From Owenia fusiformis (Eukaryota > Annelida > Polychaeta > Sabellida > Oweniidae), in NCBI GenBank assembly GCA_903813345.2, contig CAIIXF020000007.1, positions 4,221,730-4,285,729 on the forward strand: a stretch of 64,000 nt of DNA, written 5' to 3'. The first letter of the stretch is position 1. Every line of letters begins with the position of its first letter. The notes under the pieces were generated by a model. The model was not told the DNA's origin and did no database searches. It saw only the letters and a program-made list of their open reading frames with translations. The position numbers and the translations under genes are program-made. Of the stretch, positions 26,301 through 32,300 are shown piece after piece.

Positions 26301-29300
26301 ATATATTTGTATCTTCTTAAACATCACAAATACTATTTCAATGGTATTTCTCAACTTACTTGGACTTAGTTAACAACCACCAATTATTTAACCATTATAA
26401 CTCCAAAGTTAATGCAATTAGAGCTATTTTGGATTTGTTTAAATATTAATCAGTCTATTACCCTGGGCGCTAATTACAGAGAATACAGTAATATGAAAGT
26501 TAAAATGGTTTCTATGACAGTTACTCAATATGATTTCAACCTTTACATGGGTCTGCATCTTTTGCATTTCTTATTATAAAAACCCTATTGTGTTTTTACA
26601 TCCTTAAATTGACAATTAGTAAATTAATACATCTATCATTGAATCTGTGAGCTTACGCATGAGAAAAAATCCATGATGGTCAATTTTTGCAACAAAGTGA
26701 AAAATAGTGGAATAAGCATGGAAAAAGTAAACAGCCAGGCAATGTTGTTATCTCTTAGATGATATAAGGATGCCAGAAAATCGAAAAAGTTGAATTTCAC
26801 AGAGAAAAGAAATGAAAAATGCTTCACCATGGCAATTTCTTTGAAGGTATTCAACTAATAACTCTGCTAGTTATCTGGCTATTTCTCTCATTTATCAAAG
26901 GTTGTCTAATTTATTACATTTATACGGATTAAAATAAGGAACACAATTATACAAGTTTGATCTATTTGACTTTTTCACAATTTTATATCTAAATTATTTT
27001 CAATGAACTGCTCATCAGACAAACACCAAGGATAATCATTACATGAAACAATTAATTTATACACAAATAAATAAATAATAAAAAATCACTATTCTATCTG
27101 AAGAATATATCACAAGGCTGAAATATTTACCACAAGATCCGTTATGGTGATGTACATGTTTATCGTGCTTTCCAGTTTTTGCATCTCAATTGTACAGAGT
27201 TGTAGCTGTTTATGGAGCCACCCCCAAGAAGAATATTGTACAGCTGATTTTGGTGAGTTGTATGCTGATTTTGGTGAGTTGTATGTATACTCCATGAGTT
27301 TGGGAACTTTACAATGGATAATATATCAATAGATAATATATCAAAGCTTATTATGTTTAAATTTTTTTTTAATGATTAAATTTTTTGTTGCTTATTACAA
27401 AAGTTCAGAAAGAACAAGTCTCGGTATATTATGAATATTCAAAAGAGGACATTTAAATCTACCAGATGAAAAAAAATATAAATTGTCCAAAGCAGGCGTA
27501 ACATGCAGTAGACTAATGAACTTCTTTCTCCAAACCGAGACTAGTCTTTTATGACTTTGATGATTTTTTTTAATCGCAAAACATGAACAGCTTTGATAAC
27601 TGATCTCAACAAGACACACAGTGATAAATATCGCACTTTGAAGAGCAAACTGGCCACCATGCAATTTACCCAGCATGGCCAAAATCTAATCAGACCATGG
27701 CACTAGTCTGCTCTTGCATCTGTAAACATTTCAAGTTGACAAGGTTAGCGGTTTTCCTGCAATTTTGATGACAAGAATTTATTTGTAGTCTTGAACTTTG
27801 GGAAAATTTAGATAACATTGTTTGTGACCTAATTTGATGACCTTCGACCTTGAAAATTTTGTAATTAGCTGACCTAAATTTAAATCCAAAATATCAATTT
27901 AATAGAAAATCAAATTTTTGACCTTTTCAAGGCCACTGAAGGTCAACGAAAGGTCAAATCTGAAATCTAAGGTCAGATTTGAACTTCTGAGAACTTGTAG
28001 ATGTTTTTAAAAAAATAATTGGTCAATTTGGAGCAAGTTGAAAAATTCAACATGGCCCTCAAATTGAAAAATTCAAAATGGCCACCATGTAATTCAGCCA
28101 GCATACCCAAAACCTAATCCGATCTTGGCAATAGTCTGTTCTTGCATCTGTAAAAATTTCAAGTTGAACGGATAAGTGGTTTTCCAGGGATTTTGATGAC
28201 AAGATTTGTTGAAAAATTCAAAATGGCCACCACGTAGTTTACCCAGCATGCCCTTAACCTAATCAGATCTTGGCACTAGTCTGCTATTGCATGTGTAAAA
28301 ATTTCAAGTTGAACAGGTTAGCGGTTTTCTTGGAATTTTGATGACAAGAATTGATTTGTAGTCTCAAACTTTGAGAAACTTGGATAACATCATTTGTGAC
28401 CTAGTTTAATGACCTTGACTTTCGACCTTGAAAACTTCACTTTTTCAGACCTCAGTAGGTGTTTTGTAATTAAGCTGACCTAAATTTAAATCCAAAATAT
28501 CAATTTAGAAAATCAACTTTACAATGGATAATATATCAATAGATAATATATCAAAGCTTATTATGTTTAAATTTTTTTTTAATGATTAAATTTTTTGTTG
28601 CTTATTACAAAAGTTCAGAAAGAACAAGTCTCGGTATATTATGAATATTCAAAAGAGGACATTTTAATCTACCAGATGAAAAAATAATGATCAAAATTGT
28701 CTAAAGCAGATGTAACATGCAGTAGACTAATGAACTTCTTTCTCCAAACCGAGACTAGTCTTTTGTGACTTTGATGATTTTTCAATCGCAAAACATGAAC
28801 AGCTTTGATAACTGATGCCAAAAAGGACATCAGAATGTCAATCTTATGGAGAGATTGCAGGGCAGTGTATCAATGTATGTCTACAGGGAGTTGGTGGCAT
28901 TTCCATTTTTGGTACATCGATTTATAAAAGGAAATTTTCAGTAGGAAAACTTTATAAACTTTTACCTCATGATTAACAATATTGTACGCAGAAATCAAAA
29001 ATCACTTTGCCTTAATTTACCCAGAATGCACTGTTCAACTCTATACTGTCATACCTTAAACATCCTCTAAGATTTTAGATCAATCTCTCAAGCAGGCTGT
29101 ATGACAAGAAAACTAAGATGTGGACACGCACTTAGACCAATCTTCCACATACCATATGCCAAGGAGCCAAGGACAATACCATACCTTTTTCAGATTTTTC
29201 GGATATAATATTTTCATGCCCGAAAACAAAGCAAAACAGTAAGAAGAAAAATTTCTATTTCAGCTATAAAGGCTAAGGTCCTGAGTCACAGGGAAACAAA

Positions 29301-32300
29301 TCCTATTGATATAAACAGGGGATACCTTGTGTTCACAGTCAATGTTAGTGTAGATTACAAGGTAGGATATAAAGTTACTGTACATTATACAGAGTGGGCT
29401 AAAACATCCACATTCTCTATTTTGCTCAAACTTCTTTAAAAAGCCATAGATCTCAAGAATATTTTTGATGGAAATGCAGAAAAAATTACAAAATAGTTTT
29501 ATTTTCTGGGAAATCAAATCATTTTGAAATTTTTGCTTGGTAAGAAAGGAAATGTGATGAGTATCAGAATGATACTATGCATATAAGGCAATATATATGG
29601 TACCTTACATGTTTATTACTCTTTAAAGGGTCTTGGATGGAAATGAAAGGCAACAGTACCTTACATGTTTATTACTCTTTAAAGGGTCTTGGATGGAAAG
29701 GAAAGACAAAAGAGATCTACACAGGCCCTAATGAAGCTTTGTGTGGCTTGACATCATTGGCTAAGAATAAAGAATACATTCTCACAGGTAACCTTGTACA
29801 GATTCACATCAATTTTCTTAAATGCCCCCTGCAAAGTTCCAAAATATACTTTATTCATTCGAATATTGAGTGATTTTGGTATAAATTGTTTAACTGACCT
29901 AGTTCTTTATACAGGTAAAATTAAAGATGACAAACCCATGATTGATGTATGTGGGTTGAATGTCCTCTACAGCCAAGTATCTTCAGCTATCATTAAAGGC
30001 TTCAGGAAGACATACAGAGATAACTGTGGATGCAAGGTATGAAATGGGGAACTAATGAGTAACTTTAAGTCAAGATTAACATTCAAGTGCCTTTAATTCT
30101 GGATTAAAGATTTGAGTGCCTTTAAGTCTAGGTTAAACATTCAAATGCCTTTAATTCTGGATTAAAATTTGAGTGCCTATAAGTCAGGTTTAAACATCTA
30201 AGTGTCTTTAAGTCTAGGTTAAATATTCAAGTGCCTTTAAAGCCATGATGTCTCGATTAATCATGCCTCGGCTAATCATCCAAGTGTCATTTGTCATTTG
30301 ATTTGGGGGAATTGCATAAATCTTAAATCTCAAATACTGAAACATTTAATATATATATAACACAGCTTGGGAGACATGTGTATTCCCTGGGGAAATATAT
30401 AGAAACTATATAGAAAACACTGCACTTGGATCAGCCCCTTTAATGATATTCTATCAATTAACAGTACTTTATCCCACCACAGAGTTGGACCCATATATTC
30501 TGTATTGTAGATCTGTAGGTTTGATGATGAGTGTGGACCAGGAGATTGCTACCTGCCAGCCTTTGGTAGTTACCCCTGCTATAATCTACAGGCTGTGTGT
30601 CAGAGAGCTTGTGAGGGACATGGAGGTATAGTATTTCAGGAATGTTTGGAAGTTTTTAGAATCTCCCCAAATTTTAGTCAATTTTTAGACAAAGTTGAAA
30701 CTCTTAAAATATGCATTTTTCCCTTTTTTAATTTGTCTAAAAACTTAAAATAATTTGGAGAGCTTCCAAACATTAAAAGATATCATAGATTTCAAAATTG
30801 ATACGAAAAAGTAGATATGTTGCTTGTTATGGGTAATTAAAGTTCAAAAATAACAAATTGTATCACTGTTGTACCTGCCTGGTATATTATCGGTAGCTGC
30901 ATATACTAAGGGTGATATTATAAAATATATTTTCATTTCTGTTTTTTAATCAAATTAGGAAACTTGAAGGGGTGTAAGTATTAAAGGCTGTGTAGACTTT
31001 CTCCCATTTGTTGGTTTCTCTATCTAATCCTTCGAACATTTCAGGTGAGCCTATGTGTACATGGAACCTAGACAAAGGATGGTGGGACTGCATGAAGAAA
31101 TCCAGGTACTGCCAACTTGTAGGATCATGTCAGCTTAAAGATACACCTCCATCAGGAAGACGTGGTTTTAACACCTGAACAATTTATTAACATTCACTTT
31201 CTTATTCAATGATTACAAAATAAAATTTTCAGATTAATATAAGTATCAATATCAGCTGTTTTCTAATTCTGAATAGGGTAAAATTAATAATGGGAAAAAA
31301 TAAAAAGTAATCTAAAAATTGAAGACTGACCTTGATATGAACTTAGCTTCAGAATACAAAAATCATCTTTTTAAATCACTATTTCTTTATTTTCTAAATT
31401 TGATCTGAACCCAAATGTGACATCTGAAATAAATCAGTTTATTTTTTGATTTAAGTCTCTCTAATGACCTTTCAAAGTTATTCATTTATCCAAGAATGTT
31501 CCAAAATTACTTTGCAAAGCATTTAATCATGACTGTTCAAAGTTAACATTATCCACATATTTTTCCAAAGTCAAAATCTAAATTCGTAATCTCAAAGCCA
31601 ACAGTTTTGTGTACAAATGATGACAGGACTATTTCGTAAGCGAAGCTGACAGCAACTCTTGAAAGAGAGTTTTCGATAAAAAGTCGGTGCACACTTGTTC
31701 GGCTTGGATCTCCTCATTTTCTTCTTATTGTTACAGACGTATTCAATCTTCATTGGTCTTTCTTCTAACAATCCATCTACACTATCATTGCTGCAAAAAT
31801 CTGTCGATATCAACTCTTTTTGAACAGTCCCACAGTCGGTAATGCAAAGTGCGGAAACATCAGAAGATTCCGTGCTATTTATAGCACTTATAAGGATACA
31901 GCAATACCCATGGATATTGCTTAATTTGTCGTTACAGTTTTTGCCCTTATTTGGACATTTGAGTTTGACTGGTACACGGCATACGTTATCTCTGATGTGC
32001 TCCTTTAGGGTATTCAGAACATGAATTCCAATATTTCCATTTGCATCTGTAGCTACTTTGGATAAATCAATCGCATTGTTGATTATGCTTGTTGTCACCA
32101 GTGAATTCATGTCCATACTGAATAAATCCATTGCAACACAGGTGGGAGCCATACAGAAAACGACAAAGGTTGAGATAAATATCTTCATTTTTATGCTTCT
32201 TAGCTATACTATGTGCCTACATGTACGCTTACAAAACATATTCCACCAGTTAATCAGCCAATACAGCCTTGTGACTTTAACTTGATTTCCCAGACATATT

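What the first reader, a model, noticed from the sequence alone, without database searches (positions are those of the whole stretch)
27144..31178. TIMP nested antiparallel in NBEAL rather than in Synapsin
TIMP genes of vertebrates and of Drosophila are well known for lying inside an intron of Synapsin on the opposite strand. Here an intact TIMP sits in the same nested, antiparallel way but in a different host. Either this is an extra TIMP that moved, or the ancestral arrangement was lost in this lineage.
Basis: partly seen in the sequence, partly recalled or inferred. Interest (0 to 1): 0.7.

Follow-up and report, generated by a model that had tools for sequence, protein, structure and literature searches.

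The report
TIMP gene inside an NBEAL intron
An ordinary-looking animal protease-inhibitor gene (TIMP) sits on the opposite strand inside a large intron of an unrelated gene (NBEAL); this is real, but TIMP copies outside Synapsin are already known and the nesting is most likely incidental.

Summary
An intact six-coding-exon TIMP (226 aa) lies on the + strand at 27144-31178. It is inside a 9.3-kb minus-strand intron (24764-34046) of an NBEAL gene whose exons continue in order on both sides. No Synapsin family turned up in the 200 ORFs scanned, of 617 of 40 aa or more in the window. The inference of a striking exception is weak: published surveys put TIMPs outside Synapsin in vertebrates (TIMP2), Nematostella and amphioxus (PMC2825198) and count 0-28 canonical TIMPs per molluscan species (PMC10755359). 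The same NBEAL gene seems to hold three other candidate guest genes. Introns within the TIMP coding part exclude a simple retrocopy and suggest DNA-level duplication or movement. The chain has 17 mature cysteines instead of 12 and a divergent C-terminal half. I favour the extra paralogue. Low interest; a new member of a known kind.

The parts
27144..27252 (+). TIMP coding exon 1: signal peptide (by eye) and mature N-terminus CSC; a 21-bp tandem duplicate offers a second in-frame donor after 27273 (adds 7 aa)
29264..29361 (+). TIMP coding exon 2
29685..29787 (+). TIMP coding exon 3; its acceptor and first 27 nt lie in a 56-bp tandem duplication (29600-29711)
29915..30036 (+). TIMP coding exon 4
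30511..30625 (+). TIMP coding exon 5, C-terminal domain
31045..31178 (+). TIMP coding exon 6 with stop; AATAAA at 31219
34047..34153 (-). NBEAL exon upstream of the host intron
24764..34046 (-). Host NBEAL intron, 9283 nt, holding TIMP and the Cys-rich ORF
24680..24763 (-). NBEAL exon downstream of the host intron
24021..24359 (-). Next NBEAL exon (34% identical over 103 aa to recalled human NBEAL2); donor after 24021 or after 24017
31592..32188 (-). Second candidate guest in the same intron: single-exon ORF, 198 aa, candidate signal peptide (by eye), 14 Cys after residue 19; no Pfam hit, one sub-cut-off NCBIfam hit

Best explanation
This is a genuine TIMP paralogue that reached an NBEAL intron by DNA-level duplication or movement with its introns, in an animal lineage that probably has more than one TIMP. 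It is most likely transcribed from its own promoter and secreted; its N-terminal wedge (free amino group of Cys1 in C-S-C, plus the NEALC stretch) would then plug the zinc site of metzincin proteases. The nesting is most likely incidental: a long intron tolerates an opposite-strand gene. Shown: gene structure, domain, nesting, no Synapsin hit in the ORFs scanned, all 12 TIMP-2 cysteines alignable. Inferred: secretion, inhibition, own promoter, extra copies elsewhere, incidental nesting.
For: In-frame six-exon gene with GT/AG introns. TIMP 92.9 bits, NTR 22.4 against a cut-off of 21.9. Alignment to TIMP-1, -2 and -3 begins at the mature Cys1. All 12 TIMP-2 cysteines pair in one global alignment (last 33 residues of TIMP-2 recalled). 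Host exons colinear on both sides. Other candidate guests in the same host: Cys-rich ORF, SDR ORF, fibrinogen-like GGGW ORF. TIMPs outside Synapsin and up to 28 molluscan copies in print. In human, 152 nested antiparallel against 75 nested parallel pairs (PMC2330155 Table 2, passages).
Against: No transcript, genome or relative sequence could be examined, so expression, copy number and phylum are unknown. In Ecdysozoa, gastropods and cephalopods, canonical TIMPs are one or none, so 'several TIMPs' is not safe for every phylum. The published expansion is mainly tandem, and no second TIMP was seen among the ORFs scanned here. Pfam TIMP covers only profile 2-145 of 183. The mature chain has an odd number of cysteines (17), and residues 4-6 read LWS where TIMP-2 has SPV, so inhibitory strength is open.
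Confidence: 0.7

Rival explanations
1. The ancestral Syn-TIMP arrangement was lost in this lineage and this is the only, relocated TIMP.
For: No Synapsin family in the ORFs scanned; an intact intron-bearing gene. Synapsin without a nested TIMP is known in nematodes (PMC2825198). Several phyla have one TIMP or none.
Against: PMC2825198 reports TIMP nested in Synapsin in its examined species except nematodes. Some lineages carry many TIMPs. The divergent, Cys-rich C-terminal half looks more like a specialised copy than a sole conserved one.
Confidence: 0.12
2. A derived TIMP-like structural protein: the extra, odd-numbered cysteines cross-link it into byssus, shell or another matrix rather than making it a protease inhibitor.
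For: 17 mature cysteines against 12. Scallop Sbp8-1, an atypical TIMP with two extra C-terminal Cys, polymerises through them (PMC5975577, passages).
Against: Mature CSC and NEALCGL, close to the ESLCGL of TIMP-3, are kept. The phylum is not established. Odd cysteine counts occur for other reasons.
Confidence: 0.2
3. Assembly chimera: a TIMP-bearing piece misjoined between two NBEAL parts.
For: No reads or second assembly could be checked.
Against: NBEAL exons continue in order and strand on both sides with compatible phases, and there are no N. A misjoin would have to insert TIMP while leaving the host intact.
Confidence: 0.04

Closest known systems
Synapsin-Timp nested gene pair (Drosophila to human)
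   Same: TIMP wholly inside an intron of a larger gene, on the opposite strand (PMC2825198; PMC2330155)
   Different: Host is NBEAL; no Synapsin family in the ORFs scanned
TIMPs independent of Synapsin (vertebrate TIMP2; extra TIMPs of Nematostella and amphioxus); expanded bivalve TIMPs
   Same: TIMP outside Synapsin (PMC2825198); multi-copy family in bivalves (PMC10755359, which does not report Synapsin hosts: the word does not occur in its text)
   Different: An NBEAL or neurobeachin host was not found in print by the search (open-licence library only)
Scallop byssal TIMP Sbp8-1
   Same: TIMP with extra C-terminal cysteines (PMC5975577, passages)
   Different: Two extra Cys there, five here by one alignment; no evidence of byssal expression here

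Membership tests
TIMP | TIMP/NTR domain by profile | tested here: met
   PF00965 92.9 bits, cut-off 23.1; PF01759 22.4, cut-off 21.9
TIMP | Cys-X-Cys at the mature N-terminus after a signal peptide | tested here: met
   Alignment to mature TIMPs starts at query residue 20, CSC; the signal peptide was judged by eye, no predictor run
TIMP | Twelve conserved cysteines | tested here: met
   All 12 alignable, five extra; pairing in the C-terminal half depends on the alignment
TIMP | C-terminal subdomain of the family | tested here: inconclusive
   Profile match stops at 145 of 183
TIMP | Inhibits metzincin proteases | not testable with these tools
   Needs recombinant protein
Synapsin-Timp nested pair | Synapsin exons flank the TIMP | tested here: not met
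   No Synapsin family among 78 ORFs of 40 aa or more overlapping the intron (E up to 0.05) or 122 other ORFs of 66 aa or more (E up to 0.01); 417 of the 617 ORFs of 40 aa or more and all shorter ones were not scanned, so short exons could be missed; but the flanking exons themselves are NBEAL
Synapsin-Timp nested pair | TIMP antiparallel and within one intron of its host | tested here: met
   TIMP on +, host on -, all six coding exons within 24764-34046
NBEAL (host) | Neurobeachin-family alpha-solenoid regions | tested here: met
   PF20425 38.9 bits (cut-off 23.1) and PF15787 71.8 bits (cut-off 22.9) in the stitched protein. PF16057 (DUF4800) 175.2 bits at 1.8-2.8 kb; that this DUF belongs to NBEAL is recalled
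NBEAL (host) | NBEAL rather than NBEA/LRBA | tested here: inconclusive
   Eight exons colinear with recalled human NBEAL2 residues 5-502; not compared with NBEA or LRBA; no BEACH domain was identified in the window

The most novel reading that the evidence does not exclude
Antiparallel nesting of TIMP in a large gene for neuronal or vesicle-traffic proteins has arisen or been kept more than once (Synapsin, here NBEAL) because the host intron gives the guest something, such as shared chromatin or antisense dosage, so the NBEAL-TIMP nest is a convergent, selected counterpart of Syn-TIMP.
Probability: 0.05. Interest if true: 0.6.

Novelty: new member of a known kind. Interest (0 to 1): 0.2.

Why it matters
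Syn-TIMP belongs to only three overlapping-gene clusters reported as conserved between Ecdysozoa and Deuterostomia in a five-species survey (PMC2330155, passages), so re-nested TIMP paralogues are natural controls for whether that nest is selected or merely inherited. One example in an unidentified species does not test it. The gene itself is an ordinary-looking TIMP with a cysteine-enriched tail.

Tried and rejected
Simple retrocopy: rejected, because five introns interrupt the coding part. Artificial host join: rejected on profile and order evidence, although the profile gain over shuffles is modest (38.0 against 31.6-34.2 bits, three shuffles, one of which by chance also extended upstream to profile 219) and upstream exons alone gave no Neurobeachin hit (proteins 2 and 5). 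Synapsin exons nearby: none found in the 200 ORFs scanned. Genome-wide copy search: not possible. Relatives in viral and prokaryote contigs: none for TIMP, none in viral contigs for the Cys-rich ORF. Solved structures for the host: best E 0.38, 0.2 and 0.57, none credible. RNA families at gathering score in the window: none. Papers: the search on TIMP gene structure in Crassostrea gigas gave three papers, none on the point by title and abstract start; of 15 listed of 556, none contains 'synapsin' by the counts shown; of 10 listed of 331, PMC2825198 is the only one with 'not nested'. Structure prediction was not run.

Full report
Observation. The window is 64,000 bases, 34% G+C, without N, and no whole genome is held for it. 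On the + strand, six exons between 27144 and 31178 join to a 681-nt frame coding 226 aa, the five introns all GT/AG. Pfam gives TIMP at 92.9 bits (cut-off 23.1) and NTR at 22.4 (cut-off 21.9). Of 18 solved sequences at E up to 1, 15 are TIMPs (TIMP-2 7.9e-15, TIMP-3 3.2e-14, TIMP-1 4.6e-14 at best), their matches starting at the mature Cys1; the other three have E 0.25 or worse. AATAAA lies at 31219 and 31299. Chance is not an issue.

Host. On the minus strand, exon candidates run from about 46.5 kb down to about 1.8 kb: most from a splice-site and codon scan, those at 46.5, 36.4 and 35.4 kb picked by eye from the ORF list. Concatenated (without the 46.5-kb piece), those from 38.7 to 8.5 kb match PF15787 (71.8 bits) and PF20425 (38.9 bits), and three at 1.8-2.8 kb match PF16057 (175.2 bits). 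The TIMP intron is bounded by 34047-34153 and 24680-24763, phase-compatible. PF20425 aligns from profile 198, at the first residue of the upstream exon 34047-34153, across the join to 367 at 38.0 bits. With the 102 upstream residues shuffled the score is 32.1, 31.6 and 34.2: a modest but consistent gain. These E-values (0.025 to 3.9e-19) are for a two-sequence comparison without composition correction. In the default run at E up to 1e-3, of the seven single exons visible in the output only 36 kb and 24.0 kb hit (the 46-kb result was cut from view). The stitched protein hits at 1.6e-27 (5e-28 by default), covering the 36-kb exon onward. NBEAL against NBEA/LRBA was not tested directly.

Synapsin. 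Of 78 stop-free stretches of 40 aa or more overlapping the host intron, three matched TIMP and none Synapsin at E up to 0.05; five other families gave one weak match each, best 0.0037. Of 122 further stretches of 66 aa or more, 11 families matched at E up to 0.01: Neurobeachin-type solenoids, DUF4800, SDR-type families, RRM_1, Arm_4 and two weak ones (FlaC_arch, DUF4988), and no Synapsin or TIMP. Together these are 200 of 617 ORFs of 40 aa or more; short Synapsin exons could escape.

The protein. The predicted mature chain starts [13 protein letters not shown] and has 17 cysteines. All 12 of TIMP-2 can be paired and five are extra, the pairing in the C-terminal half depending on the alignment (TIMP-2 tail recalled). 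Pfam stops at profile 145 of 183. Two micro-duplications touch splice sites: a perfect 21-bp tandem repeat duplicates the exon-1 donor in frame (7 extra residues possible), and a 56-bp repeat duplicates the exon-3 acceptor. By inspection, the first exon-3 acceptor would run into a stop in the expected phase. Intron 1 contains further repeats.

Other guests. The same intron holds a minus-strand 198-aa Cys-rich ORF with no Pfam hit at E up to 1; its one NCBIfam match (TIGR01590, E 0.004) is 16.9 bits against a cut-off of 71.1. An intronless SDR ORF (first ATG at 40695, stop at 41504, +; one search tested 40662-41501) and a fibrinogen-like GGGW stretch at 16036-16749 (+; NCBIfam 35 bits against 30, but no Pfam hit) lie between NBEAL exon candidates; for the SDR this rests on the 46.5-kb exon, a 10-residue match. 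So three of four candidate guests are antiparallel. That makes TIMP one of several and weakens any special link with this host. None has expression evidence.

Literature. PMC2825198 (passages): TIMP is nested in Synapsin in its examined species except nematodes; TIMP2, and TIMPs of Nematostella and amphioxus, lie outside it; Ciona has two and sea urchin ten inside it. PMC1867822 (passages) instead states that all four human TIMPs lie in synapsin genes, which conflicts for TIMP2. [quoted passage not shown] Ecdysozoa have one or none; 132 of 142 molluscan sequences have five exons, range four to six; the expansion is ascribed mainly to tandem duplication. PMC5975577 (passages): Sbp8-1 polymerises through two extra Cys. 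PMC2330155 (passages): nested antiparallel pairs outnumber nested parallel ones in human (152 against 75). PMC3786989 (abstract start in a search listing): intronic genes are about 6% of Drosophila genes. The search for neurobeachin, TIMP, nested gene and intron listed 20 of 23 papers holding at least three of the terms, none holding neurobeachin, TIMP and nested gene together.

Conclusion. Real, intact and correctly described, but the surprise rests on a premise that is too strong. The most likely reading is an extra TIMP in a permissive long intron. Whether a Syn-TIMP locus exists in this species is the decisive, untested point. The odds are as first set; checking changed details, not the balance.

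Noticed in passing
31592-32188 (-): Single-exon ORF of 198 aa, candidate signal peptide, 14 Cys after residue 19, no Pfam hit (one NCBIfam match far below its cut-off); orphan secreted Cys-rich candidate nested beside TIMP.
   Followed up: partly
40695-41504 (+): Intact, apparently intronless short-chain dehydrogenase ORF (Pfam E 8.5e-53) antiparallel between NBEAL exon candidates.
   Followed up: partly
15360-16752 (+): Stretch with a fibrinogen-like GGGW domain (NCBIfam E 1.1e-8), preceded by a coiled-coil-like ORF (by eye), antiparallel inside NBEAL; start codon not established.
   Followed up: partly
27243-27284 and 29600-29711 (+): Tandem micro-duplications that copy the donor of TIMP exon 1 (21 bp, perfect) and the acceptor of exon 3 (56 bp, 95%).
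   Followed up: yes
53706-63325 (-): CELF/Bruno-like RNA-binding gene pieces (RRM-like stretch at 54.4 kb, Ala-rich exon at 63.1 kb) upstream of NBEAL; the name CELF is recalled, and one RRM_1 match among the 122 ORFs is probably this one.
   Followed up: no
27305-28825 (+): TIMP intron 1 carries a 170-nt repeat pair at 99% identity about 1.2 kb apart, and a further 163-nt repeat family, suggesting a recent local duplication or mobile element.
   Followed up: no
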